Shown here piece by piece: positions 1-35,748 of a stretch of 35,748 bases of DNA. This DNA is from a virus. Position 1 is the first letter of the stretch. Each line of letters begins with the position of its first letter. The stretch spans positions 1 through 35,748 of IMG/VR virus record IMGVR_UViG_3300012964_000030. One strand, written 5' to 3'. Under the pieces are notes generated by a model, which worked only from the letters and a program-made list of their open reading frames with translations, made no database searches and was not told where the DNA came from. The position numbers and the translations under genes were made by a program.

Positions 1-62
1 ACCATAACCTGAACTTATTTTTCCATTCATTGACATATTTGTTTGCTTATAAAAACTTGTTA

Positions 63-278
63 TTAACCATCACCGGAACCGTCATCATGACCAGCATTTA
101 TACGGAAACCGGAACCGAAACCGTCACCGTCACAGAAACCGTCACCATAACCGTAACCGTCACCGTCACCGTCATCGGAACCGGAACCGTAACCGGAACC
201 GTAACCGGAACCGGAACCGTAACCGGAACCGTAACCGGAACCTAAACCACAACTTAGTTTTTCAATTATTGTTTCCAT
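63..278 (-). CDS. Low-complexity Gly-Ser/Tyr/Asp-rich small protein
   Basis: A 71-residue protein on the leftward strand. The first 10 residues (METIIEKLSC) are ordinary; from residue 11 onward it is almost pure Gly-X dipeptide, with X being Ser, Tyr or Asp, encoded by the hexanucleotide array. It overlaps the stop of the upstream gene by 13 bases, which suggests translational coupling in the exo-bet-ssb operon. A weak AGGT sequence lies before the start. The opposite strand is also open across the array, but reads as a Thr-Val-Gly polymer with no ribosome site, so the minus strand is preferred on context. Function unknown. Confidence 0.45.
   Translation of the reverse strand: METIIEKLSCGLGSGYGSGYGSGSGYGSGYGSGSDDGDGDGYGYGDGFCDGDGFGSGFRINAGHDDGSGDG
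67..246. repeat. Hexanucleotide tandem array (CGNNAC units)
   Basis: About 30 consecutive six-base units of the form CGNNAC, mostly CGGAAC, CGTAAC and CGTCAC on the plus strand, run from about 67 to 246. Units degenerate toward the left end (75-115) and are cleanest at 180-240. The period is a multiple of three, so the array stays open in a frame on each strand. On the minus strand it encodes alternating Gly with Ser, Tyr or Asp. Such an array is likely to change length by slippage or unequal recombination. Confidence 0.9.
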
Positions 279-7807: not shown

Positions 7808-7954
7808 TTAATCTTCGGCACATTCATCGTCAATGTTGTGTGTGTCGTCGTACTCTGTATCATCATATTCTACGTTATAATGTCTATAGTAACTAGAACA
7901 TATCTCCCATTCGTAACCTTCATCACCATGAAGATTATCATATCTAGAAATCAT
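7808..7954 (-). CDS. Small acidic Tyr/Asp-rich protein
   Basis: A 48-residue leftward protein starting MISRYDNLHGDEGYEW and ending in an Asp/Glu/Thr-rich tail with repeated (Y)DDTE/YDDTH units. AAGGAG lies 5 bases before the ATG, a nearly ideal ribosome site, and the start overlaps the end of the upstream gene by 11 bases. These points support a real gene despite the short length. The highly acidic composition would suit a DNA mimic or a protein inhibitor, but this is only speculation. Confidence 0.65.
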   Translation of the reverse strand: MISRYDNLHGDEGYEWEICSSYYRHYNVEYDDTEYDDTHNIDDECAED

Positions 7955-8180
7955 AATTTCTCCTTAAGTAAAATTGAATTTCTTGTTTTAAGCTATTTAA
8001 ACCCATTAATAGATCGTCTAATTCGTGAACTGTATAATGATTTTTTACTTCTCTTTTAACTCCGTTTTCATCTGAGTATCTTATTGTTAATTCGTGAATG
8101 TCTTGTTCATTATCCCCGACGAATTCTATTTGGGATGAAAAGTCGTATTGGAGCTCGCTGTAGTTAAATTGTTTGTTCAT
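7944..8180 (-). CDS. Hypothetical acidic protein
   Basis: A 78-residue protein in the leftward trio. It opens MNKQFNYSELQYDFSSQIEF and has a central strand pair (ELTIRYSDENGVKREVKNHYT) followed by a helix ELDDLLMGLNSLKQEIQ. A GGACT-type weak ribosome site precedes it, and the end overlaps the start of the next gene. It has no recognised domain. Location between the early and late regions fits accessory genes driven by the leftward promoter at 8476-8504. Confidence 0.7.
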   Translation of the reverse strand: MNKQFNYSELQYDFSSQIEFVGDNEQDIHELTIRYSDENGVKREVKNHYTVHELDDLLMGLNSLKQEIQFYLRRNYDF

Positions 8181-8251
8181 TTAGTCCTCATTTGTTATGG
8201 AGTCCTTTCCATTCATTAATTTTATGTTAGTTGTTTTATTTAAAGCGGTTT

Positions 8252-8443
8252 TTACACCGCTTTTCTTAATTTTCCATTTTTAAATTCAAACTCTATCATT
8301 GAGCCATCTGAAAATCCGTAAAACTCCCATCTCATTGCTCCGCCAAAAGCAGCGCTATCATTTTCTTTCCACACTTTAGCTTCGGCCAACATTTGATTTA
8401 GATTGTTTTTGTAATCTCGTTTAATTTGTTTCGCTGTTGTCAT
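8252..8443 (-). CDS. Hypothetical protein, first gene of leftward trio
   Basis: A 63-residue protein beginning MTTAKQIKRDYKNNLNQMLAEAKVW, a basic helix, then a beta-rich part (MRWEFYGFSDGSMIEFEFKNGKLRKAV). A GAGGAAAT ribosome site lies just upstream. The fold looks like a small helix plus sheet protein. First gene downstream of a good leftward promoter 33 bases away. No family recognised. Confidence 0.7.
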   Translation of the reverse strand: MTTAKQIKRDYKNNLNQMLAEAKVWKENDSAAFGGAMRWEFYGFSDGSMIEFEFKNGKLRKAV

Positions 8444-8475
8444 TTTATTTCCTCATTTGTTTGCTTGATGTGTGT

Positions 8476-8504
8476 ATAGTAACGCAATAGGTCACGTGAC
8501 GCAA
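8476..8504 (-). promoter_or_regulatory. Leftward promoter with duplicated TTGCGT motif
   Basis: On the minus strand a -35 TTGCGT (8499-8504) and a -10 TACTAT (8476-8481) are spaced by exactly 17 bases. The spacer contains a second TTGCGT (8482-8487) and the 10-base palindrome GTCACGTGAC (8491-8500). TTGCGT is the half site of the inverted repeat at 2780-2800, so one regulator may act on both promoters. It would drive the 8443-7808 genes. Confidence 0.6.
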
Positions 8505-8544
8505 GTGTTATTTTTAAAATTAATGAAAATATTTTATTCACAAT

Positions 8545-8580
8545 GTTATCCACGGTTTTTGTTGATAACTATTGCGCAAT
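8545..8580. promoter_or_regulatory. Operator candidates in the divergent late control region
   Basis: GTTATCCAC (8545-8553) and GTTGATAAC (8561-8569) form an inverted repeat with one mismatch over 9 bases and a 7-base spacer. Immediately after it comes the palindrome ATTGCGCAAT (8571-8580), which overlaps the -35 of the rightward promoter. TTATCCACG (8547-8555) also resembles a DnaA box, differing from the consensus TTATNCACA at its last base. Confidence 0.45.
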
Positions 8581-8600
8581 ATTAGTCCTTTATATATAAT
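8572..8600 (+). promoter_or_regulatory. Rightward late promoter
   Basis: TTGCGC (-35, 8572-8577) and a perfect TATAAT (-10, 8595-8600) with a 17-base spacer. Transcription would start near 8607, ten bases before the ribosome site of the gene at 8624. It is the only strong rightward promoter visible before the terminase and virion genes, and is therefore the best candidate for starting the late transcript. Confidence 0.7.
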
Positions 8601-8623
8601 TAGCCCATATTCAAGGAGTTGAT

Positions 8624-8803
8624 ATGCGTTGTGTGGTTTGCCAAGGAAGACGAAAGGTTGATAGCATGGGTGGTATGCTTAAAGATTGTCCTGCTTGCGA
8701 TGGCACGGGATTAATTGATGTCAAAATACCAAATGAAACTAAAGAAAATGAAGATTTATTTCCCAATATAAAAGAACATAAAAAAGAGAAAAAAAGAGAC
8801 TGA
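8624..8803 (+). CDS. Small DnaJ-type zinc-finger protein
   Basis: A 59-residue protein with AAGGAG before its ATG. It has [10 protein letters not shown] at the N-terminus and CPACDGTG at residues about 25-32, the paired Cys-x-x-Cys-x-Gly knuckles of a DnaJ-like zinc ribbon. The rest is a highly charged Lys/Glu tail. It is the first gene after the late promoter and its stop is one base from the terminase small subunit start. Similar tiny zinc proteins are common in phages, with no proven function; a role in late control or packaging is inference. Confidence 0.75.
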
Positions 8804-8804
8804 A

Positions 8805-9158
8805 ATGCCTGCGGGAAGACCCACTAAATATAAGCCTGAATATTGTGAGATTGTCATTGAAGAAATGAAGATTGGCGCATCTATTGAAGAACTTTGTCTT
8901 GTTGTTGACGCTTGCACAGACACTATAAATGAGTGGAGAAAAGTGCATCCAGAATTTTCCGCAGCCATAAAAAAAGGCCAGAGCTATTCTGAAGCTTGGT
9001 GGAGACGTACTGGACGCACCCAACTTGAGAATGATAAGTTTAATTATACCGGCTGGTATATGAACATGAAAAATCGCTTTGGATGGGCAGATAAAAAAGA
9101 AACGCGTTCTGTTGTATACATGAGACAAGAAGACGCTCTTAAAGAGCTTGAAGAATGA
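8805..9158 (+). CDS. Terminase small subunit
   Basis: A 117-residue protein of the small terminase type. It begins [17 protein letters not shown], the usual opening of this family, then a helix-turn-helix around [24 protein letters not shown], then a helical segment ([19 protein letters not shown]) and a C-terminal part with [15 protein letters not shown] that often contacts the large subunit. It recognises the packaging start site on phage DNA. The large subunit gene follows after one small gene, and its end overlaps that gene by 4 bases. Confidence 0.9.
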
Positions 9159-15550: not shown

Positions 15551-16879
15551 ATGACGACAACACCGCTTAATACTTTGCAGAACGTGCAACTCTATATCAA
15601 AGCAGAGCTTGCATGGCTGTCAAACTCCTATTGGGGTATTGAACATGCCAATAAATCATTGGAAGAGTTCAATAACATAAAAGGAAATTTAGGTGACACA
15701 ATCACTTTTGATACCACACCGCGTTTTATTACTTATGATGGCTTGGTTATAACACAACAACCATCCGTTCAACGTTTGCAATCTCTGATTTGCTCGCAAG
15801 CCTTTAATACGTCAGCAGGTTATACTGATGAGCAATTTATATTTAACGTTGAAACCTACATGGATAGATTCGGTTATTCAGCTGCCGAGGAAATTGGCTC
15901 TAAAATCGAACAAGACATTTTACTGAATATTGTTTCAGGAGTTATTGGAAACAATCCAAAGTTATCCGGATTTCAACAAGCACAAGTTAATAGCGGACCA
16001 TACCGTTTTTTTGGTGATGGCGTAAACCCAATTAACTCTTACACACAACTAGCGCAAGCCTGGGCAAATTTCACGGCTTATGGCGCTTCACGTCATGAAA
16101 AACGTGGTGTTATACCTATTGATTTAGTGCCACCAATTGTAGGTTCTGGGCTAAATCAGTTTGCAGTCAAGCGTAACGATGAAATTGCGACATCTTGGGA
16201 GTTAGGACGATTTACTGGATTAGATGTCGAATGGGCTTCTAGTAACCTTTTACCGGTTCATGTATCTGGGACCATTGGGGATACTGCGGCTCCTAATAAC
16301 ATTTTGACAGTAATTTCAGTAAACGGAACATTAGGTGATAACGTTACTGAAATCGTATGCTCAGAACCAACAAGCGGAACCGATCCAAATGCCATTAAAG
16401 CAGGTGATCTATTTCAATTTAATGATACTGCTGGATTTGCTAAATTAAGATTCTTAACATTCATTGGTCATTCCGTAACACGCTTACCTGTACAATTTAG
16501 AGCTATCGAAGATGCCGCTTCTTCTGCTGGGCAAATAACAATAAAAATTCAAACCATTAATGGCGTGGGATTAGTTTGGGCTCAAAACCAAAACCAAAAC
16601 GTTAACAATACCATTGTGGCTGGCATGACATTTACGCCTCTGCCATCACATCAAGCGGGTTGGATGGACTCAGGTAACCAATTTTACTTGGCCATGCCTA
16701 AATTACCTAATGAGTCTCCTTTTGAAACCGTCTATTTTAAAGATCCTGATTCTGGAGCGTCATTAAGGCATTACTGGGGAGCGCAATTTGGTATGGACAA
16801 TAGAGCCTATGTACGAGATTGCATCTTTGGGTCAACGCTTGTGGCTGAAAACTCAATGCGTATGATATTTCCGCTCTAA
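15551..16879 (+). CDS. P22-type major coat protein
   Basis: A 442-residue major capsid protein. The opening ALNTLQNVQ-like segment and VQLYIKAELAWLSNSYWGIEH (about residues 13-33) followed by ITFDTTPRFITYDGLVITQQ match the P22 gp5 HK97-fold coat group; P22 gp5 is about 430 residues. FNVETYMDRFGYSAAEEIG is the spine-helix region. The C-terminal part has AMPKLPNESPFETVYFKDP and ends with NSMRMIFPL. It follows scaffold, and its ribosome site GGAG lies in a short hairpin-prone leader. Confidence 0.88.
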   Translation: MTTTPLNTLQNVQLYIKAELAWLSNSYWGIEHANKSLEEFNNIKGNLGDTITFDTTPRFITYDGLVITQQPSVQRLQSLICSQAFNTSAGYTDEQFIFNVETYMDRFGYSAAEEIGSKIEQDILLNIVSGVIGNNPKLSGFQQAQVNSGPYRFFGDGVNPINSYTQLAQAWANFTAYGASRHEKRGVIPIDLVPPIVGSGLNQFAVKRNDEIATSWELGRFTGLDVEWASSNLLPVHVSGTIGDTAAPNNILTVISVNGTLGDNVTEIVCSEPTSGTDPNAIKAGDLFQFNDTAGFAKLRFLTFIGHSVTRLPVQFRAIEDAASSAGQITIKIQTINGVGLVWAQNQNQNVNNTIVAGMTFTPLPSHQAGWMDSGNQFYLAMPKLPNESPFETVYFKDPDSGASLRHYWGAQFGMDNRAYVRDCIFGSTLVAENSMRMIFPL

Positions 16880-20421: not shown

Positions 20422-21048
20422 ATGCCATTTGACCCGATTAGCCTAGGATTGGCTGGAGCAGGTTTAGGTGCTGGACTTTTTGGAAGAAAGCAAAAAAATC
20501 CAGCTGATGCTGCAATGCCCTATTTGAATCAAATTCCAGGCGCAACATTACCCTATTACAATCCCTATATACAAGCAGGACAAGGTGCCTTAGGCGACCT
20601 GCAATCACAAATCTCGCAATTGCTAGGTAATCCTGGTGAGTTATATAGTCAACTAGGACAAAATTATCAGCAATCACCAGGATATAAATTTGCGCTAGAC
20701 CAAGCGATGCAAGCTGGCGGTAATGCCGCAGCAGCCGGTGGTATGCTTGGAACGCCAGCTAATCAACAGAATCAAATGTCGATGGCTAATAATCTAGCCT
20801 CACAGGACTTTGGCAATTACATGCAAAACATTTTGGGATTATATGGCTCAGGTTTACAAGGGCTTGGTGGATTAAATCAAATGGGTTATGGCGCGGCAAC
20901 CGATTATGCGTCTGGGTTGGCTAACACGTTAGGCCAACAAGCACAATATGCTTATGGTGGTCAGGCAGGAAAAAATGCGGGCAGGTCAGCAATGGGTCAA
21001 AATATCTTTGGTGGCTTGGGTGCTCTGCTAGGTGCTTGGAATAAATAA
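20422..21048 (+). CDS. DNA ejection-type protein
   Basis: A 208-residue protein with AAGGA upstream. The N-terminus MPFDPISLGLAGAGLGAGLFG is a Gly-rich hydrophobic segment, followed by Gln/Gly/Ala/Asn-rich low-complexity sequence (QSPGYKFALDQAMQAGGNAA, then AGGMLGTPANQQNQMSMANNL). This composition and place after the gp10-like gene are typical of ejection proteins that enter the host with DNA. Specific P22 counterparts (gp7, gp16, gp20) cannot be assigned. Confidence 0.72.
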   Translation: MPFDPISLGLAGAGLGAGLFGRKQKNPADAAMPYLNQIPGATLPYYNPYIQAGQGALGDLQSQISQLLGNPGELYSQLGQNYQQSPGYKFALDQAMQAGGNAAAAGGMLGTPANQQNQMSMANNLASQDFGNYMQNILGLYGSGLQGLGGLNQMGYGAATDYASGLANTLGQQAQYAYGGQAGKNAGRSAMGQNIFGGLGALLGAWNK

Positions 21049-21060
21049 CAGGAGTTAAGA

Positions 21061-22359
21061 ATGCCTTGGAATATTCCTGGTATACCTTTTAAATTAACCG
21101 CTGAAGACATGGGCGTGCCTGACTATATTGGCGCTATGCAAAAAGGATTTAATCTCGGCGCCTCACCAAAGATATTGGCTGAAAACTTATTGGCTCAAAA
21201 GTTAAGCAATGCAATTAATTCGACTAAAGCAAAATACGCTGAACAAGAAGCAATGCAGGGATTGGAGGCACAGAAAGCGCAGACTGCTTTAAGTCAAGGG
21301 CAATTAGGAATGATGCCGCTTGAAAGGCGCATGAAAGAAGCACAGTTAGGGTTGGTTCCTTGGAACCAACGATTATTACAATCGCAAGCCGCTCAAGCTC
21401 AAGCAAACGCTCAAAAAGCACAACAAATGGGAAATTTATATAATTTTGCAATGCGCGGGGGGTTTCAACAAGGTGGTATGCCTCAAAATCAAGGACAACA
21501 AATGCCTTCATATCAAGAAGGCCATGGGATGCCTCCTTATGCCCAGCAAATGCAAGGAGGGCAGCAGGCGCCACAAACACAAACAGGACAATATAATCCT
21601 CAAGCAGATATGGCAGCAGCGTTAATGAAAATGCCTGTATATCATCAAACAGCTGATGGACAATTAATTTCCGTTAATCCGTTATCAGGATTGACTTCAA
21701 CAAAAATAGGTCCTTCTGAACGAGAAAAAGCTTTTACAAAAGAAGATGTTAAGATTGCTACAAATTATCAAAATGCCGCAATTGCAGGCCGTGATATTCA
21801 AGATACATATAATGAAGTTGGAAATATCATAGCATCACCTGAATTTGAACAAATGAGACAGCACGCAATATTAGGAAAACATGAATTAGGCTGGTATTCA
21901 AAATTTGGAACTAAAGAACAACAAGATATGGTTGGACAATTTAATACATTGACTGGGGATATTATTCGTAAATCTGCACGAGAATTTAAAGGTTCATTTA
22001 GAGTAGGAGAACAAGGATTATTAAATTCTATGAAGCCAAATAGTTCAGATACAGTAGATGTTGCAAAAGGTAAAATAAAATCATTATCTTTAATGAATCA
22101 ATTGCTTACTCAACGCTCATCATTAACTAGCGATCTAATTAGACAAGGGTATAGCCCTAATCAAGCCAGTAAACTAGCAGACCAACAAATTGATGGCAAT
22201 AAAATTAGAGAAGAAATTAAAAATCAATTAAATCCCAAAAAAACGATTAATTTAAAAGCGTTTACGGAACAGGATATTATTGATACCGCACAAAAACATG
22301 GAATAAGTGTTGAGGAAGTAAAAAATCAATTAAAAGCAAAAGGATTATATAATGGCTAG
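21061..22359 (+). CDS. Putative ejection/internal virion protein
   Basis: A 432-residue protein with AGGAG upstream. Residues 1-45 begin MPWNIPGIPFKLTAEDMGV; a long Gln/Ala/Met-rich helix-forming segment follows (about 60-180), then a proline/Gln linker (QGQQMPSYQEGHGMPPY), then a helical half ending in ITQDIIDTAQKHG-like sequence. Location between two Ala/Gly-rich virion genes supports an internal head or ejection role. No enzymatic motif is visible. Confidence 0.68.
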   Translation: MPWNIPGIPFKLTAEDMGVPDYIGAMQKGFNLGASPKILAENLLAQKLSNAINSTKAKYAEQEAMQGLEAQKAQTALSQGQLGMMPLERRMKEAQLGLVPWNQRLLQSQAAQAQANAQKAQQMGNLYNFAMRGGFQQGGMPQNQGQQMPSYQEGHGMPPYAQQMQGGQQAPQTQTGQYNPQADMAAALMKMPVYHQTADGQLISVNPLSGLTSTKIGPSEREKAFTKEDVKIATNYQNAAIAGRDIQDTYNEVGNIIASPEFEQMRQHAILGKHELGWYSKFGTKEQQDMVGQFNTLTGDIIRKSAREFKGSFRVGEQGLLNSMKPNSSDTVDVAKGKIKSLSLMNQLLTQRSSLTSDLIRQGYSPNQASKLADQQIDGNKIREEIKNQLNPKKTINLKAFTEQDIIDTAQKHGISVEEVKNQLKAKGLYNG

Positions 22360-23614
22360 AGATTTATTTGCTGAGGCAGGTATAGAGCCAATAAAAAGAG
22401 ATTTATTTTCTGAATCAGGAATAAATGATTCAATGCAAAAAGCACAGGAAATCCAATCCCAACATCCTTATTTATATAAACTAGCCGAGATGGTATCGCG
22501 TCATCCTGGTTTGTCTAAAGGTATAGAAGCAGCCGCTAATATAACGTATCCAATTGGATTAGGGGCTGCTCAAGGAATCGGCGATGTATCTGCATCAATT
22601 GGAAATATTGCTTTGAATCCATTAAGTCGTTTAATAGGCAAGGATATTCGATTGCCACATCCACAACTTGAGCAGAATTTAGAACCTAATATGAGAAATA
22701 AGTTATTATTTGGTTTAGGTCAGTTAGGGGCTCAAATTCCAGCGTATTTATCAGGAGAAGGTCTGATTGCAAAAGTCCTAGGTCAAACTGGAGCAAGGAC
22801 TATTGGTTCAAAAGCAGCTACAGGAACATTATCAGGCCTTGGTTTAGGAGAAAACAAAGAAGGTGAAGGAAGAGTTTTATCTGGAGCTTTAGGAGGATTA
22901 ACTCCAATAGGTTTAAGTGTTCTTGGGAAATCAACTCCATTAAATTCTAAAATGATTGCCAAAGATGTATTAAAAGGTATGGAATCAACTGAAAAACATT
23001 ACAATCAAGAATTTAATTCGATATTTAATGAGGCAAAAAATAGAAATATTGCACATGTTGGTATTGAAATACCAAAATTTAATTATTCAATATTAAAAAA
23101 AGGTGGAAGTAAGGATTATTTACACTCTTTAAATGAATTTAAAAAAAATCCAACTTTAGAAAACGCTCATAATGCTCAATCAGATTTAGGTAAATACGCA
23201 AGTTCAATTGGAAGACCTTCAAATACATTAGAAAGAGAAGCTAAAGATGAGGCATTAAATTTGTCTGATAAACTTAGGGAATCAATGATGAATGGATTTT
23301 CTAGAAATAAAAGTTCAGATTTAGCATTAAAATATAATAATGCTCGAAAAGGTTATAAAGAAGAATACATTCCTTATTTAAATAGCAAATCCATTAAAGC
23401 ATTAAAATCAGGTGATTTAAGGCCTTCTAAATTTGCTACAAAAATAGCGAATGAAGAAAAATTTATGTCAAAAATTGGACAATATAGACATCCAATGATA
23501 GGATATAGGGAAAAATTACTAAAAGTGACAAAAAGCAAGCCATTTGCAATGGGGATAGGATTTGGAGCTGGTGAGCTAGGGCTTCATGAACTTAAAAAAT
23601 TTATTGGTAAATAG
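22352..23614 (+). CDS. Putative DNA ejection protein
   Basis: A 420-residue protein starting inside the end of the previous gene, with AAAAGGATT upstream. The first part has a near repeat, RDLFAEAGIEP then RDLFSESGIND. Residues about 60-190 are Gly/Ala-rich helices (PIGLGAAQGIGDVSASIGNIA, LGQLGAQIPAYLSG, TGTLSGLGLGENKEG) of a kind seen in membrane-inserting ejection proteins. The C-terminal half is a charged helical rod. It is the last gene before the leftward coiled-coil cassette. Confidence 0.68.
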   Translation: MARDLFAEAGIEPIKRDLFSESGINDSMQKAQEIQSQHPYLYKLAEMVSRHPGLSKGIEAAANITYPIGLGAAQGIGDVSASIGNIALNPLSRLIGKDIRLPHPQLEQNLEPNMRNKLLFGLGQLGAQIPAYLSGEGLIAKVLGQTGARTIGSKAATGTLSGLGLGENKEGEGRVLSGALGGLTPIGLSVLGKSTPLNSKMIAKDVLKGMESTEKHYNQEFNSIFNEAKNRNIAHVGIEIPKFNYSILKKGGSKDYLHSLNEFKKNPTLENAHNAQSDLGKYASSIGRPSNTLEREAKDEALNLSDKLRESMMNGFSRNKSSDLALKYNNARKGYKEEYIPYLNSKSIKALKSGDLRPSKFATKIANEEKFMSKIGQYRHPMIGYREKLLKVTKSKPFAMGIGFGAGELGLHELKKFIGK

Positions 23615-23691
23615 ATAAATAAAATGTGTATCGCTTTTATCTTTATTATGATTTTGATAGCAATTATAGCTAATGTTGATTAAATCATTAA

Positions 23692-24006
23692 TCATACAAT
23701 CCCAAACTTATGCAATATTACAGGAACAATAATAGTTGTCACTATAATTCCAGTATTAAAATTTATTTTATGATCTAGTTTTTCATTACCTTTATCTATC
23801 TTATTATCTAAAAGCTCAACAGTTTTATCTATCTTTTTGTCTAAAATTTCAAAACTTTTATCTATCTTTTTGTCTAAGACATCAAAATTCCTATCTATTT
23901 TATTATTTAATTTATTAAGCTGACTTTCGATCATTGTAAATTTTTCATCATGAACACGTAATTGAACTTCATGTTCAATATATTTTTCAGTCAATTCATT
24001 ATTCAT
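23692..24006 (-). CDS. Tail-anchored coiled-coil protein, trio member 3
   Basis: A 104-residue leftward protein. N-terminal helix NELTEKYIEHEVQLRVHDEK, then five 11-residue repeats (about residues 32-86) around the core LDKKIDK, and a hydrophobic C-terminal segment GIIVTTIIVPVILHKFGIV without a signal peptide. The layout suggests a coiled-coil rod held in a membrane by its C-terminus. The start overlaps the upstream paralogue by 4 bases. It is the long member: the repeats have expanded relative to the other two. Function unknown; XhlA-like phage proteins share the coiled coil plus C-terminal segment plan. Confidence 0.8.
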   Translation of the reverse strand: MNNELTEKYIEHEVQLRVHDEKFTMIESQLNKLNNKIDRNFDVLDKKIDKSFEILDKKIDKTVELLDNKIDKGNEKLDHKINFNTGIIVTTIIVPVILHKFGIV

Positions 24007-24197
24007 AGCACACCAAATTTTTGTAAAGTAATCTGTAATACATAAATTATTACAAAAATCCCAGTCCTAATATTAATTTTACGATGTAACTTATCAACTC
24101 TCGTTTCTATTTTGTTTTCAAATCTAATAACCTTTTCATAAACTTTACGTAATTGAATCTCATGTTCAATGTATTTTTCAGTCAAGTCATCTTTCAT
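24003..24197 (-). CDS. Tail-anchored coiled-coil protein, trio member 2
   Basis: A 64-residue paralogue of its two neighbours. It begins MKDDLTEKYIEHEIQLRKVY and ends KINIRTGIFVIIYVLQITLQ-KFGVL, keeping the N-terminal helix, one LHRKIN repeat and the C-terminal hydrophobic segment. The middle (EKVIRFENKIETRVDKL) has diverged most. Both ends overlap the neighbouring genes by 4 bases (ATGA), so the three are translated as one unit. Confidence 0.78.
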   Translation of the reverse strand: MKDDLTEKYIEHEIQLRKVYEKVIRFENKIETRVDKLHRKINIRTGIFVIIYVLQITLQKFGVL

Positions 24198-24376
24198 AGC
24201 ACACCAAACCTATGTAATATCACAGGTAATATAATAGATGTGATAATAATTCCTGTATTAAAATTTATTTTATGGTCTAATTTATCAAGCGTCTTTTCTA
24301 AAATTTTAAACTTTTCATCATGGACACGTAATTCTACTTCGTGCTCTATAAATTTTTCAGTCAAATCATCTTTCAT
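24194..24376 (-). CDS. Tail-anchored coiled-coil protein, trio member 1
   Basis: A 60-residue protein, the first of the leftward trio. It reads MKDDLTEKFIEHEVELRVHD, then KILEKTLDKLDHKINFNTG, and ends with the hydrophobic segment IIITSIILPVILHRFGVL. It is the minimal form of the family: helix, one repeat, membrane segment. It lies 25 bases from the start of the proposed promoter transcript. The ribosome site before the ATG is weak. Confidence 0.78.
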   Translation of the reverse strand: MKDDLTEKFIEHEVELRVHDEKFKILEKTLDKLDHKINFNTGIIITSIILPVILHRFGVL

Positions 24377-24408
24377 AGAAGTTTAATCATTGTGTTTTTT
24401 AATTAATC

Positions 24409-24437
24409 ATTATACAATTATAAAACGATTTAATCAA
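24409..24437 (-). promoter_or_regulatory. Promoter of leftward coiled-coil trio
   Basis: On the minus strand TTGATT (-35, 24432-24437) and a perfect TATAAT (-10, 24409-24414) are 17 bases apart. Start of transcription would be near 24402, just ahead of the 24376 start codon. This gives the trio its own expression, independent of and opposite to the late operon. Confidence 0.65.
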
Positions 24438-24516
24438 TTCATTACCTATATAATCTAGCAAATGGATTTATTAAGGTATAAAATTAATCATTATTCTGTC
24501 CACATGGAACCGTGGA

Positions 24517-26796
24517 ATGACAGATGCAACACAAACGCCTAGCCCTTTATATATTCCATTCCAAGGATTGCAGACCTATTTTGTTAATAAACTAGATGGT
24601 AGTCCACTATCTCAGGGTAAAGTTAAATTCTTTAAAGATAATAATCGTACCGTCTCAAAAGATGTTTTCCAGCAAGTTTTGCAAGCCGATGGTAGCTACC
24701 ATTTTGTTGATATCGGCTCAGAAATTACTTTATCCAATGTTGGAACATTTGCAGACATTAACGGCAATGACATTCAAGTCTATGCCTTCCCATACACTGG
24801 AAATGAAGACGCTCCTGGAACTGTAGAGCTATACTTTATTGAAATTTATGCCGCTGACCCACCAATAAGTACGGGCGCATTACAATTTACCAGAGAAGCT
24901 CAACCGCCTAATGTTGTTATCGATGAAAATCCAATTGATATCTTTGAATCAACAGATAATGAATTAAGCAATCCTCAATTTGTAGAAATTAGCTTTGTTC
25001 CAGACCCAGTAACGACTGCTGCTGTATTTAACGTATCAGGAACAAATCAAGAAACTGAAATAGCACCAGGATGGACAATTGTTACTACCGGTACCGGTTC
25101 TGTTACAGTAAAACAAGTGGCAATTGTTGATAACACGATTCCATCTAATCCACCTTATGCGATAGATATAAATTCCGCAGGTATCACAGATATTTACTTA
25201 AGACAACGTTTAGAAGCTTCTCCTAGACTTCTTCTCAATGGTTTTATCTCAGGATATTTTTTAGCAGCCAATGTTGGAAGTGCAACTCAATTATTGTTTC
25301 AAATGGAATATGTTCCTTCTCAGGCAACAGCACAGACATTTTTAATTTGCCAAGGGACCAATGCGCCAAACACAAAATTAACTCCTATATCAGGAACTGT
25401 AGCAACAACACCTAATCCATTATTTTATAATCACAATCCAGCGCCAGCAGGCTATGTAGATATAGAAATTATATTCCCAGCATTAACTCACGTACAAATT
25501 AGTAGCGTGCAGATTACGGGTGTTCAAAATGAAAATTCAAGTGTAGAGTTTTTAGAGCAATCAACGAATAGACAAATTGACCATCTATTTCATTATTACA
25601 AAGATTCAATATTGCTACAGCCTAAAGAATCAATTTTAACCGGATGGGTATTTGGACTTAATCCATTTCAATTTCGTGACTTTACACCTGCAAATTTAGC
25701 TGATAATGCTTATGTTTGCGATCAAACCATAGCGGTACAACAAAATTATGTTGCATCAGCAACAGGTAATAATATTTTAATTGGCCAAGGAACTGCTGCT
25801 AATAATTATCCATTAAATGTTCAGGCTGTTACAGTTAATAATAAATTTGCAATTGTGCAATATATCGACCCTTATGATTTATACGCATTGTGGGGAAATA
25901 ATTTATCGGCGATGGTAAGAGCTAAGATAACAACTAGTAATGCGTCAAATATACGATTTAAAATGCAACTGTATTATAAACCTACATTACCAAATAAAGT
26001 TGCTCAAAACGATCCTATTGCCTCATGGCTTCCAGCAGCAGGTGCAGAACCATCATTTTCAGGTGGATGGATTAAAATACAAGCGTTTAGCGATCCAGTT
26101 TATTACTTAACGTCAAGTTATCAAAATTTCATATTTAATCAATTTACGTTGCCCGCATTAGCTGGAGCTGACCAAACACTAGCAGTGGTTATCTATACGA
26201 TTGATTCAATGGTATCGACTGGTACGGCTGATTCAATTCAAATTGATACAGTATCTTTAATACCTAATGATTTTGCACTCGATGCAACACCTTTGACATT
26301 TGATGAAACATTAGAGCGATGTCAGTATTACTATGAAAAAAGTTATCCGATTGGAGTATTACCAGGAACAATAACTAATGAAAATGCTAAATATATTGCC
26401 ATGCCTTCATTATTTGGAACACTTAATCATCAAGCCTACCCTACTGTATTTGAAATAAACTATCAAACTATAAAAAGAGCAATTCCTAAAATTGTTAGTA
26501 TATTTAATCCTGCAACAGGAGCAGGAGGACCAGTTGGAACTACTGCGCAAGTACGTGTAAGAGCATTTGCTATCAATGTTGGAGGCAGTGGCGCCACTAT
26601 AGGTACTGCTGATACGCTTATAAGTAGTGGTTGGAATACCTTATCATCATCAACAAAAAGATATACTTTTGATGCTTCAACGACATTGCCATTAATTATA
26701 AATACAGCAGCAGGACTTACTGTTTCAAGGGCTTCAGCTGGAATTAATTATCATTATGCTGTTGATGCAAGAATGGGAATAGAACCACCACCTTAG
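24517..26796 (+). CDS. Large tail fibre/appendage protein
   Basis: A 759-residue virion protein. Residues 10-120 start PLYIPFQGLQTYFVNKLDG and SPLSQGKVKFFKDNNRTVSK, a virion-attachment type domain common at the start of podovirus tail proteins. The body has beta-sandwich-like stretches (NPQFVEISFVPD, GWTIVTTGTGSVTVKQVA) that look like carbohydrate-binding modules. The C-terminal part contains LTFDETLERCQYYYEKSYPIG, seen in fibre proteins. A small hairpin (TCCAC/GTGGA, about 24500-24516) covers the start region. It restarts the rightward direction after the trio. Confidence 0.75.
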   Translation: MTDATQTPSPLYIPFQGLQTYFVNKLDGSPLSQGKVKFFKDNNRTVSKDVFQQVLQADGSYHFVDIGSEITLSNVGTFADINGNDIQVYAFPYTGNEDAPGTVELYFIEIYAADPPISTGALQFTREAQPPNVVIDENPIDIFESTDNELSNPQFVEISFVPDPVTTAAVFNVSGTNQETEIAPGWTIVTTGTGSVTVKQVAIVDNTIPSNPPYAIDINSAGITDIYLRQRLEASPRLLLNGFISGYFLAANVGSATQLLFQMEYVPSQATAQTFLICQGTNAPNTKLTPISGTVATTPNPLFYNHNPAPAGYVDIEIIFPALTHVQISSVQITGVQNENSSVEFLEQSTNRQIDHLFHYYKDSILLQPKESILTGWVFGLNPFQFRDFTPANLADNAYVCDQTIAVQQNYVASATGNNILIGQGTAANNYPLNVQAVTVNNKFAIVQYIDPYDLYALWGNNLSAMVRAKITTSNASNIRFKMQLYYKPTLPNKVAQNDPIASWLPAAGAEPSFSGGWIKIQAFSDPVYYLTSSYQNFIFNQFTLPALAGADQTLAVVIYTIDSMVSTGTADSIQIDTVSLIPNDFALDATPLTFDETLERCQYYYEKSYPIGVLPGTITNENAKYIAMPSLFGTLNHQAYPTVFEINYQTIKRAIPKIVSIFNPATGAGGPVGTTAQVRVRAFAINVGGSGATIGTADTLISSGWNTLSSSTKRYTFDASTTLPLIINTAAGLTVSRASAGINYHYAVDARMGIEPPP

Positions 26797-32624: not shown

Positions 32625-32870
32625 TTATATCCAATGAAAACTATGAGCAAGTAATCCAAGAATGCTGGAAAATCCTCCGATCATAAATCCGATCATCCAT
32701 ATGAAATTAGAATCGATTTGATTATCTATCTTGTCGAATTTTTCATCTATTTTATCAAATCTACTCTCAAAACGTTTCAAAGTTTCATTGATATTATCAA
32801 TAGATTGTTCTAAAAGAGCTATCCTTGTCTCTTCGCCATAATGAAAATCTGATTTTTTTGAATGTGACAT
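32625..32870 (-). CDS. Tail-anchored coiled-coil protein, pair member 2
   Basis: An 81-residue leftward protein. The start at 32870 (MSHSKKSDFHYGEETRIALL) is chosen by analogy with its neighbour, although an in-frame ATG at 32882 exists. A helix (residues 10-35) leads to a short repeat zone (RFDKIDEKFDKIDNQIDS) and a C-terminal membrane segment that is almost the same as in the neighbour: FMIGGFSSILGLLAHSFHWI. Phage XhlA-like proteins have a similar plan of coiled coil plus C-terminal hydrophobic segment. Function unknown. Confidence 0.78.
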   Translation of the reverse strand: MSHSKKSDFHYGEETRIALLEQSIDNINETLKRFESRFDKIDEKFDKIDNQIDSNFIWMIGFMIGGFSSILGLLAHSFHWI

Positions 32871-32872
32871 GT

Positions 32873-33283
32873 TTATATCCAATGAAAACTATGAGCCAAT
32901 AAACCTAATATGCTTGAGAAGCCTCCAATCATAAACCCCATAAGATATTTGAAATTAGAATCTATTTTCTTATCTAAATCGCTGATTTTAATATCAATTT
33001 TATTATCCAAATCACTAAATTTAATATCAAATTTTTTATCTAAATCACTGATTTTAATATCAATTTTATTATCCAAATCACTGATTTTGCCATCAAATTT
33101 TTTATCTAACTCATTGAATTTACTATCAATTTTTTTATCTAAATCATTTATTTTATTTTCAAGTTGGTCAAAACGCTGATCAAATTTTATTAAAAGATTA
33201 TTTATATTAATAATTGAGTTTTCTAAAATAGTGATGCGAACTTCATGATCGTAATTGAACTTATTTATTTTGTTATGCGACAT
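32873..33283 (-). CDS. Tail-anchored coiled-coil protein, pair member 1
   Basis: A 136-residue leftward protein with AGGAG upstream. N-terminal helix SHNKINKFNYDHEVRITILE, then six 11-residue repeats (residues 46-111) such as SDLDNKIDIKI and SDLDKKFDIKF, then FMIGGFSSILGLLAHSFHWI. It has no signal peptide. Its C-terminus is the same as in the neighbour, so the two are recent duplicates that differ mainly in repeat number. The HEVRI piece recalls the HEVQL piece of the trio at 23692-24376. Confidence 0.82.
   Translation of the reverse strand: MSHNKINKFNYDHEVRITILENSIININNLLIKFDQRFDQLENKINDLDKKIDSKFNELDKKFDGKISDLDNKIDIKISDLDKKFDIKFSDLDNKIDIKISDLDKKIDSNFKYLMGFMIGGFSSILGLLAHSFHWI
32951..33148. 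repeat. 33-base tandem repeats in coiled-coil gene
   Basis: Six consecutive 33-base units, each encoding one 11-residue coiled-coil repeat with LDxK(I/F)D in the centre. Units 3 and 5 (SDLDNKIDIKI) give the same peptide. Base changes are few, so the array arose by recent duplication. It can gain or lose units in frame. Confidence 0.85.
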
Positions 33284-33367: not shown

Positions 33368-33396
33368 ATTATAAAATAATCATACTGACCCATCAA
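33368..33396 (-). promoter_or_regulatory. Leftward promoter of coiled-coil pair, with palindrome
   Basis: On the minus strand TTGATG (-35, 33391-33396) and TATAAT (-10, 33368-33373) are 17 bases apart. The -10 lies within the inverted repeat ATGATTA-TAAAA-TAATCAT (33365-33383), a likely regulator site. Transcription would pass the hairpin at 33314-33342 before reaching 33283. Confidence 0.55.
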
Positions 33397-33474: not shown

Positions 33475-34887
33475 ATGAAAAATAAAAAATTATTATTGAT
33501 TGGTTTAAGTATTACATTGTCAACCGTATCACCATTCATAAATGCTAAAAAAATATTTCCTTCAGATATTTTAGGAAGAGAATTGATTATTCCAGGGGTG
33601 AAGTGGGCAGGTCACGTTGGAATTGCTACAAGGTCAATGTATGACCCAAGTGGCATGTCAAAGGTTGCTGATTTAGTCATAGAAGTTCTTAGAGAACCTG
33701 TTATAGGTCAAATTAATACTATAAATGATTTTAAAAGAAGATCTAAATATTGGGGTAGTAAATATGGAGTAGTACCAAGTCCAAATCATGGTTATAAAGC
33801 TTTAGTAGAAGCAAATCATCAACGATGGTGGGTTAGTGAATATACTGTAAATACCGATTATAGAATTGGCGAGGGAAATCCTAACACTGGAGCAATATTT
33901 GTTACAGGACGATGGCGTTGTGATACTTATGCCTGGTGGGCTTATTTTAGCCAAGGAATAGATACAATGCCTAGTCGAATATGGCTTCCAAGAACTTTAT
34001 TTAATTTTTTTCCTTATTTTAATGATGAAAGATTTAATACACAATTATCCATACAATCATCAGAAATTTTAGAAAATCAATCTTTAGACAATGTAACTTC
34101 TGAAGATCTTAATGAAATGTCTTTTGAGAAATTTCAAACAATAATGAACACACCTATAAAATCTTCAAATAATTATATTTCAACTAATTCAGCATATATG
34201 CGATTTGCATTCGATGAAAACCTTAATGAAGTAAAACGCGGCGCTATGATAGATAAAATCACATCAAAGGGAAATGAAATAAATTTAGTTTCAAATTTAA
34301 TCAAATTATATAATGAAACTAATAATGAAGAAGTAAAAAATAAAGTCGTAAGTGGACTTATGTATCATGTACAAGGAGAATTAAGACAACATCCTAATAT
34401 TAATGATAAAGAATTGTTAAGAAATTTCTTTCATGGATTAATAAGTGAAAAACTTAATCAACTTCGCGCTAATTGGGCTACGATGGGTTTTATAGATACA
34501 CATACACCTGAAGAAATATTGAACAACGTTGATAAAATTGATAATCAATTAGTTGTCACTACACATCAAGCATCCATCATTATTAAATACAAATTGGTAT
34601 TTATATCTAAAGAATTGCAATCAATTTATATCCAATCGATTGTTGACGAGCTTAAAAAAGCAAATGATTCTGATTTAGATGGTTATTTTTTTGGCCCATT
34701 AATTATAGGATATAAAGCCACTGGTAAAAATTTATTAAATCCTGAATCTAAAAAAATAATTCTAACTTATTTAGATGATATGAAATTTAAATATTCAAAA
34801 GAAGGTATTAAATCAAATCCTAATGATTTTCATCGCCAAATGACGGCGCCAATTTATTTTGAATTACTTAAACTCATAAGTAACTAA
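33475..34887 (+). CDS. Secreted protein with permuted NlpC/P60 (YiiX/LRAT-like) pattern
   Basis: A 470-residue protein. Residues 1-24 are a signal peptide (MKNKKLLLIGLSITLSTVSP, cut after FINA). The catalytic-type pieces come in the order of circularly permuted papain folds: His47 in AGHVGIATR, an acidic residue Glu70 in LVIEVL, then Cys149 in WRCDTYAWWAYF. In regular NlpC/P60 the Cys comes first. Relatives include YiiX/YaeF hydrolases that cut amides or lipids. Residues 200-470 are helical with no domain I know. It has its own promoter and no virion-gene features, so it is likely cargo (a lysogenic-conversion gene) acting in the periplasm or outside the cell. Confidence 0.65.
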   Translation: MKNKKLLLIGLSITLSTVSPFINAKKIFPSDILGRELIIPGVKWAGHVGIATRSMYDPSGMSKVADLVIEVLREPVIGQINTINDFKRRSKYWGSKYGVVPSPNHGYKALVEANHQRWWVSEYTVNTDYRIGEGNPNTGAIFVTGRWRCDTYAWWAYFSQGIDTMPSRIWLPRTLFNFFPYFNDERFNTQLSIQSSEILENQSLDNVTSEDLNEMSFEKFQTIMNTPIKSSNNYISTNSAYMRFAFDENLNEVKRGAMIDKITSKGNEINLVSNLIKLYNETNNEEVKNKVVSGLMYHVQGELRQHPNINDKELLRNFFHGLISEKLNQLRANWATMGFIDTHTPEEILNNVDKIDNQLVVTTHQASIIIKYKLVFISKELQSIYIQSIVDELKKANDSDLDGYFFGPLIIGYKATGKNLLNPESKKIILTYLDDMKFKYSKEGIKSNPNDFHRQMTAPIYFELLKLISN

Positions 34888-35157: not shown

Positions 35158-35379
35158 TTATCTATCATGTTTTAATCCAGGCAAAATTATTTCACGTCGT
35201 CCTCTTTTACTTTCAATAATAATCTTATCACCATGTTGGATCGCATCGGTTAAAGCATCACTCAATTCTATAGCTCTTCGTATAACATCCGATCTACTTG
35301 GGGCTTCAAAACATTTTTTTAAACGATCAGTTTGATTTAGAGTTTTTTCTTTAATACGAATAGTCATGATACTAGACAT
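35158..35379 (-). CDS. Ribbon-helix-helix transcription regulator
   Basis: A 73-residue leftward protein from the ATG at 35379, chosen because GGAG lies 4 bases upstream. MSSIMTIRIKEKTLNQTDRL is the N-terminal strand and first helix, and SRSDVIRRAIELSDALTDAI the second helix, as in CopG/Arc-type dimers. The basic end KIIIESKRGRREIILPG may be a third strand. Two palindromes overlap its own promoter, which suggests autoregulation. It may be the antitoxin-like half of a pair, but no toxin gene is next to it. Confidence 0.75.
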   Translation of the reverse strand: MSSIMTIRIKEKTLNQTDRLKKCFEAPSRSDVIRRAIELSDALTDAIQHGDKIIIESKRGRREIILPGLKHDR

Positions 35380-35407
35380 AAATTCTCCATTATTTCTTTT
35401 ACATTGA

Positions 35408-35436
35408 ATTGTAATACAATTGTATATACAATGCAA
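35408..35436 (-). promoter_or_regulatory. Promoter with two adjacent palindromic operators
   Basis: Minus-strand TTGCAT (-35, 35431-35436) and TACAAT (-10, 35408-35413) are exactly 17 bases apart. ATTGTAATACAAT (35408-35420) and ATTGTATATACAAT (35419-35432) are both palindromes and share two bases. Together they span the whole promoter. This is the arrangement expected for cooperative binding by a ribbon-helix-helix dimer, here most simply the product of the gene at 35158-35379. Confidence 0.7.
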
Positions 35437-35613: not shown

Positions 35614-35748
35614 ATGAATACTATAATATTGCCTGAGAACCGATTTGATGAAGCCGTGAAGTTTGTTTTAAGTCACGAGGGCGGATTAAGTGATGATAAA
35701 AACGATCCAGGTGGATTAACGAAATATGGTATATCAATAAGGTTATTG
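35614..35748 (+). CDS. GH108-type endolysin, 5-prime part
   Basis: The first 45 codons of a lysis enzyme that runs off the window, with ATAAGGATT upstream. FDEAVKFVLSHEGGLSDDKN then DPGGLTKYGIS is the signature of glycoside hydrolase family 108 (phage lysozyme/N-acetylmuramidase), with catalytic Glu22 in HEGG. It would cut peptidoglycan glycan strands at lysis. It has no signal peptide at the N-terminus, so it would depend on a holin. The rest of the gene lies beyond 35748. Confidence 0.85.
   Translation, partial: MNTIILPENRFDEAVKFVLSHEGGLSDDKNDPGGLTKYGISIRLL

What the first reader, a model, noticed from the sequence alone, without database searches (positions are those of the whole stretch)
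23692..24516. Leftward cassette of three tandem membrane-anchored coiled-coil proteins inside the late operon
Three overlapping genes (104, 64 and 60 residues) encode helix, LDxKID repeats and a C-terminal hydrophobic anchor. They have their own promoter (TTGATT-17-TATAAT), face against the virion genes, and lie between an ejection protein and a tail fibre. This is the layout of a lysogen-expressed accessory (moron) set, for instance a membrane-based superinfection block. The function is my inference.
Basis: partly seen in the sequence, partly recalled or inferred. Interest (0 to 1): 0.72.

Follow-up and report, generated by a model that had tools for sequence, protein, structure and literature searches.

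The report
Phage membrane-tethered coiled-coil accessory genes
An uncultivated P22-like virus of bacteria carries five small membrane-anchored coiled-coil genes in two clusters that were added to its genome, one of them at the spot where phage P22 keeps a gene that blocks rival phages, so they probably change the host membrane to the phage's advantage, though nothing here proves that function.

Summary
Three overlapping leftward genes (104, 64, 60 aa) form a tandem duplication between an ejection gene and a tail-fibre gene; each ends in a hydrophobic anchor. Corrections: only the 104-aa protein has 11-residue repeats, and a second, unreported cassette of the same family (85 and 136 aa) lies at 32625-33283. 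Purifying selection (dN/dS about 0.2-0.35) supports real genes. About 40 homologues in related uncultivated phages define one family: head motif, variable heptad or 11-residue stalk, C-terminal anchor. The insertion site equals the gene 16-gene 9 'ant moron' site of P22, which holds sieA. It is empty in most relatives; in others it holds endonuclease or regulator genes. Homologues also sit at other sites, in either orientation, including directly behind cro and beside parA; sigma70-like promoters are enriched upstream. So accessory (moron) status is well supported. 'Lysogen-expressed' is not: no tyrosine integrase in 27 records, no S24 repressor, and about a third of copies run with the late genes. 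Exclusion of other phages is my favoured function (about 0.4), by site analogy only; XhlA-like lysis helper or membrane scaffold remain open.

The parts
24194..24376 (-). first gene of cassette A, 60 aa: head (LTEKFIEHEVELR), short linker, C-terminal anchor
   Evidence: AF2 single helix; dN/dS
24003..24197 (-). second gene of cassette A, 64 aa, 4-nt overlap with the first
23692..24006 (-). third gene of cassette A, 104 aa, with 11-residue (33-nt) LDKKIDK stalk repeats
   Evidence: 33-nt spacing; period 11
24409..24437 (-). sigma70-like promoter TTGATT-17-TATAAT, 32 nt upstream of the first start codon
   Evidence: group enrichment
23676..23689 (.). left arm of a 14-nt imperfect inverted repeat flanking cassette A (TTGATTAAATCATT); right arm 24424-24437
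   Evidence: found in 3.5% of Markov shuffles, so borderline
32873..33283 (-). second cassette (B), first gene, 136 aa, with 33-nt/11-residue repeats
   Evidence: family HMM
32625..32882 (-). second cassette (B), second gene, 85 aa, short stalk
   Evidence: (79% DNA duplicate)
33368..33396 (-). sigma70-like promoter TTGATG-17-TATAAT, 84 nt upstream of cassette B
   Evidence: 3% of random windows score as high
22352..23614 (+). left neighbour: ejection protein in the position of P22 gp16
   Evidence: synteny with phrog_598 gene 20422-21048; a gene in the same position in L118 matches phrog_770 'DNA transfer protein'
24517..26796 (+). right neighbour: tail fibre
   Evidence: a homologue in L070 matches phrog_25042 tail fibre; synteny

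Best explanation
SHOWN: the two cassettes are accessory genes of one family of C-tail-anchored helical proteins (head motif, stalk of variable length, C-terminal membrane anchor), inserted by gain and loss into a P22-like podovirus genome, duplicated in tandem and under purifying selection. INFERRED: the proteins are made from their own promoters, or early in infection, rather than from the late operon; they insert in the host inner membrane with the coiled coil in the cytoplasm and assemble into homo- or hetero-oligomeric rods of different length. MOST LIKELY FUNCTION (inferred): they alter the inner membrane of the infected cell so that ejection proteins of a second phage cannot deliver DNA. 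That is the job SieA does from the same genomic position in P22. Several paralogues per genome would widen the range of phages blocked.
For: Same site and same opposed orientation as P22 sieA, between gene 16 and tailspike gene 9. The literature calls this the 'ant moron' region, in rapid flux, no morphogenesis or lysis role, largely not expressed from late mRNA (PMC2629481; PMC8022706). [quoted passage not shown] The junction is empty (gaps of about 56-170 bp) in most relatives, holds this family in the window, G003, L111, L117, L135, L141 and L185, and holds HNH, endonuclease VII, HTH or pRha genes in others. G003, with about 55-65% identical structural proteins, has a four-gene cassette at the same site. 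Upstream regions of 22 cassettes score higher for sigma70 promoters than other genes of the same contigs (mean 9.05 vs 8.04 and 7.96 of 12; p=3e-4 and 2e-5). Homologues sit directly behind cro in G044/G045 and beside parA in G026, which does not fit an exclusively late function. Copies cluster: 14 of 40 records carry the family, up to 5-6 copies each (five of these records were found through the family itself). No hit in 398 Pseudomonadota genomes at 1e-6.
Against: No sequence or fold relation to SieA or to any exclusion protein was found; PADLOC matches are scattered coiled-coil hits. No integrase or S24 repressor, so a lysogen in which exclusion would matter is not shown; lytic phages can also exclude, but usually through early genes. 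About one third of placements run with late genes. The nearest named family is XhlA, linked to lysis. Orientation in the membrane and oligomeric state were not tested.
Confidence: 0.4

Rival explanations
1. XhlA-like lysis helpers: single-anchor coiled-coil proteins that help a holin or endolysin, added as optional lysis-timing modulators.
For: PF10779 XhlA is the Pfam family hit by most members (14 of 39, best E 2.5e-5) and phrog_1193 'hemolysin' by 15 of 39 (best 4e-7); phrog_689 holin by 5. In L113/L116 two copies lie next to a lysozyme and a holin-like gene. In PBSX, xhlA works with xhlB and xlyA (PMC5589764).
Against: In the scan where cut-offs are shown (window proteins), no XhlA match reaches Pfam's cut-off. 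The copies near lysis genes are on the opposite strand. The window's own endolysin (GH108) is 2.3 kb from cassette B and about 11 kb from cassette A. One copy follows cro in the early operon. Coiled-coil composition inflates such matches.
Confidence: 0.2
2. Membrane scaffold for the phage: early-made rods that tether replication, segregation or assembly complexes to the inner membrane, comparable in role to phi29 p16.7 (recalled, not tested).
For: Copies beside early genes in G044/G045, L112 and L113, and beside parA in G026; AF2 shows an extended helix.
Against: Absent from most relatives with the same replication and packaging genes; no DNA-binding domain.
Confidence: 0.15
3. Host modification of another kind in a carrier or plasmid-like state (lysogenic conversion), comparable to Borrelia Bdr proteins.
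For: Shared anatomy: phage-borne paralogues, inner-membrane association, own promoter, variable direct repeats, one copy beside the partition locus (Bdr: PMC10016077 and PMC3303823; here).
Against: ParA in only 1 of 24 records, none in the window; no sequence test against Bdr; Bdr function itself unknown.
Confidence: 0.15
4. Minor virion or ejection components.
For: Next to ejection and tail genes; some copies co-directional within the late cluster.
Against: Absent from most relatives that keep all virion genes; opposed in most placements; some copies in early operons.
Confidence: 0.05

Closest known systems
[quoted passage not shown]
   Same: Same junction (last ejection gene / tail spike or fibre), gene facing against the late operon, own promoter, inner-membrane product, variable or absent in relatives
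   Different: SieA is 162-164 aa with three predicted TM segments; these are 50-136 aa, one C-terminal anchor, coiled coil, in paralogous sets. The family also occupies other morphogenetic-cluster sites, which PMC2629481 says does not happen in the P22-like phages it compared.
XhlA (PF10779, phrog_1193)
   Same: Small, coiled coil plus single C-terminal membrane segment; weak profile matches in 14-15 of 39 members
   Different: XhlA lies in the holin-endolysin operon; these mostly do not and are usually opposed or early
Borrelia Bdr proteins of cp32 prophage plasmids
   Same: Phage-borne paralogue families, direct repeats of variable number, inner-membrane association, own promoter, one copy next to the partition genes (PMC10016077, PMC3303823)
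   Different: Different hosts; sequence relation not tested; Bdr function unknown
CCDC90/DUF1640 family (PF07798)
   Same: Head, helical stalk, C-terminal membrane anchor (architecture recalled); PF07798 matches the 136-aa protein at 1.7e-7, 31.7 bits against cut-off 33.5
   Different: Only 3 of 39 members match; the window protein is below cut-off; match falls on the repetitive stalk and anchor

Membership tests
Phage moron (accessory insertion) | present in one phage, absent from relatives with the same flanking genes | tested here: met
   empty junctions of about 56-170 bp in most relatives, cassettes in seven
Phage moron (accessory insertion) | own promoter | tested here: met
   sequence enrichment only, no transcript data
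Phage moron (accessory insertion) | expressed from a repressed prophage | not testable with these tools
   no RNA data; lysogeny itself not shown
SieA family | three TM segments, about 160 aa | tested here: not met
   single C-terminal anchor, 50-136 aa against three predicted TM segments in SieA; no direct sequence comparison was run
SieA family | location between gene 16 and gene 9 homologues, opposed | tested here: met
   for the window, G003, L111, L185; not for cassette B
XhlA (PF10779) | profile score above the curated cut-off | tested here: not met
   (window proteins, best 23.1 vs 34.7 bits); other members: best E 2.5e-5, scores not shown
XhlA (PF10779) | encoded in the holin-endolysin operon | tested here: not met
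CCDC90-like (PF07798) | profile score above the curated cut-off | tested here: not met
   31.7 vs 33.5 bits
Bdr | sequence similarity to Bdr proteins | not tested
   cp32 sequence not fetched; see referred step
Known anti-phage defence system (PADLOC) | consistent match to one defence model | tested here: not met
   scattered coiled-coil matches, at most 3 of 39 per model

The most novel reading that the evidence does not exclude
A phage family of modular tail-anchored 'head-stalk-anchor' proteins, apparently undescribed, carried in one to six copies per genome with interchangeable heptad or 11-residue stalks, acts as a combinable set of inner-membrane exclusion factors in non-integrating P22-like phages, and moves between junctions of the early and late gene clusters.
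Probability: 0.3. Interest if true: 0.7.

Novelty: new variant of a known kind. Interest (0 to 1): 0.48.

Why it matters
The 16-9 junction is a classical site for optional phage genes, but its known contents are from P22-like phages of enterobacteria and their kin. Here a different protein architecture fills the same site in uncultivated phages, as tandem paralogues that also occur at other junctions. If exclusion is confirmed, it would add single-anchor coiled-coil proteins to the exclusion repertoire. It would also make testable whether phages without integrases carry SieA-like protection.

Tried and rejected
DNA search and tblastn in 50,697 phage records found nothing; plasmids gave only weak matches. 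A single-protein viral scan with the 104-aa protein found nothing; alignments A3 and A4 and the capsid and terminase routes worked. The genome-contig scan by terminase found only distant records, so no host was assigned. 398 genomes of one phylum (that of Inquilinus): no family member at 1e-6; the host phylum is unknown, so this is weak. PDB profile search: nothing credible. Baculovirus, apolipoprotein, Cas12 and ZorA matches were dismissed as coiled-coil composition. The flanking 14-nt inverted repeat is borderline and is not claimed as a mobile-element end. The idea that this is a lysis gene for want of an endolysin was dropped once the GH108 start was found at the right edge of the window. 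AF2 of the 33475 protein failed (pLDDT 40) and was not used.

Full report
What is there. The window is one 35,748-base record of a P22-like podovirus genome. It has a P22-type cro gene (PF14549), a DnaB-like helicase, head-closure and DNA-ejection genes (phrog_578, phrog_598) and, cut by the right edge at 35614-35748, the start of a GH108 endolysin. On the minus strand, between the third ejection gene (22352-23614) and the tail-fibre gene (24517-26796), lie three overlapping genes of 60, 64 and 104 aa. They are tandem duplicates.

A search of the window with the 104-aa protein also rings at 32954-33187. There a second leftward cassette, 32625-33283, encodes 85 and 136 aa proteins of the same build, themselves a 79% DNA duplicate. 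So the phage has five members in two cassettes.

Are they real genes? Six paralogue pairs, four from the window and two from the related phage G003, give dN/dS between about 0.18 and 0.35 with an excess of third-position changes. The 60-aa protein is predicted as one helix (pLDDT 90). This is a monomer prediction; oligomers were not modelled.

The family. Iterative profile searches over all loci fetched gave 41 distinct proteins, of which 39 were aligned as A5. They share a head motif (HEVRLR or ETRIALLE type), a stalk and a C-terminal anchor. The hydrophobic window ends at most 10 residues from the C-terminus (median 6) in all 39. 29 of 39 end in a motif like (A/L)HxFx(W/L)(I/V/F), and all 26 of 13,966 small ORFs with both head and tail motif were family members already. 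Stalks differ: 11-residue period in the window's 104 and 136 aa proteins and in G003's 129 aa protein, 7-residue in L185, L111 and G003's 116 aa protein. The tandem sets of the window and G003 combine long and short stalks. The stalk alone carries most of the sub-threshold matches to unrelated coiled-coil families.

Where it sits. In G003, with structural proteins about 55-65% identical, a four-gene cassette lies at the same junction, also opposed. Across relatives with both flanks visible, the junction is empty in most (gaps of about 56-170 bp), carries this family in the window, G003, L111, L117, L135, L141 and L185, and carries other genes in L111 (HNH), L146 (endonuclease VII), L124 and L127 (HTH) and L173 (pRha). 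This is the position of the P22 'ant moron', where sieA also faces the late genes (PMC2629481; PMC8022706).

Not only there. Members also lie between portal and scaffold (L180-L182), in the head-completion region (L115, L127, L134, L176), before terS (L124, L180), beside lysis genes on the other strand (L113/L116), next to a homologue of the 33475 gene (L112), beside parA (G026) and directly behind cro (G044, G045). By my hand count of 21 independent placements are opposed to the late genes and 7 run with them, so orientation is not a fixed property. PMC2629481 notes that in the P22-like phages it compared no morons occur elsewhere in the morphogenetic cluster; here they do.

Expression. The best promoter match within 130 bp upstream of 22 cassettes averages 9.05 of 12, against 7.96 for 203 other genes and 8.04 for 74 genes with at least 60 bp of intergenic DNA upstream (Mann-Whitney p=2e-5 and 3e-4). 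This is sequence evidence only. Not all cassettes show it, and related cassettes are not fully independent.

Is the phage temperate? No tyrosine integrase in 27 records while all 14 control genomes ring; no S24 repressor in 24; ParA in one; serine recombinase in three of 22, all three family carriers; HTH_3 regulators over cut-off in five. The window itself has none of these, but it is incomplete. A carrier or plasmid-like state is possible for some relatives; lysogeny of the window phage is not shown.

Function. Accessory status is well supported. The exclusion function is an inference from site, presumed membrane location, own promoters and paralogue sets. Against it stand the lack of any sequence link to an exclusion protein and the XhlA resemblance. 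XhlA membership fails on score for the window proteins and on operon context.

Limits. The host is unknown. Most records are fragments. Five relatives were found through the family itself, so its prevalence (14 of 40 records) is biased upward. Membrane topology and oligomerisation were not tested.

Noticed in passing
window 33475-34887 (+): 470-aa protein with a signal-peptide-like start and GHVGIA ... RCDTYAWW motifs that resemble a permuted NlpC/P60-type hydrolase by eye; a 26% identical homologue lies beside the family's genes in L112 (7486-9081). AF2 failed (pLDDT 40), so the fold is unassigned.
   Followed up: partly
window 35614-35748 (+): N-terminal 45 residues of a GH108 endolysin, cut by the end of the record.
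   Followed up: yes
L237 (G044 16396-16731) and L240 (G045 24552-24887): A family member of 111 aa overlaps the end of a cro-like gene at the start of the rightward early operon.
   Followed up: yes
L239 (G026 7887-9044): Family gene just downstream of a parA-like gene and a small gene, same strand; the same record carries a serine resolvase. Suggests a plasmid-like phage.
   Followed up: partly
L137 13954-18006, L143 16054-19770, L148 7711-11338: The head-closure and ejection gene block is inverted relative to the capsid and tail-fibre genes in three relatives.
   Followed up: no
window 35158-35436 (-): Small ribbon-helix-helix-like gene near the right end, matching phrog_8557; a homologue sits beside a family member in L176.
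   Followed up: no
window 30-278: Low-complexity repeat at the left edge that reads as a TVTVT or GYGSGS repeat on the two strands.
   Followed up: no
L111 4863-5399; L115 3722-4608; L134 5858-6499; L127 11376-11948: HNH or endonuclease VII-like free-standing nucleases lie near family members in several phages, by Pfam match in L111 and by eye in the others; homing could help the family spread.
   Followed up: no
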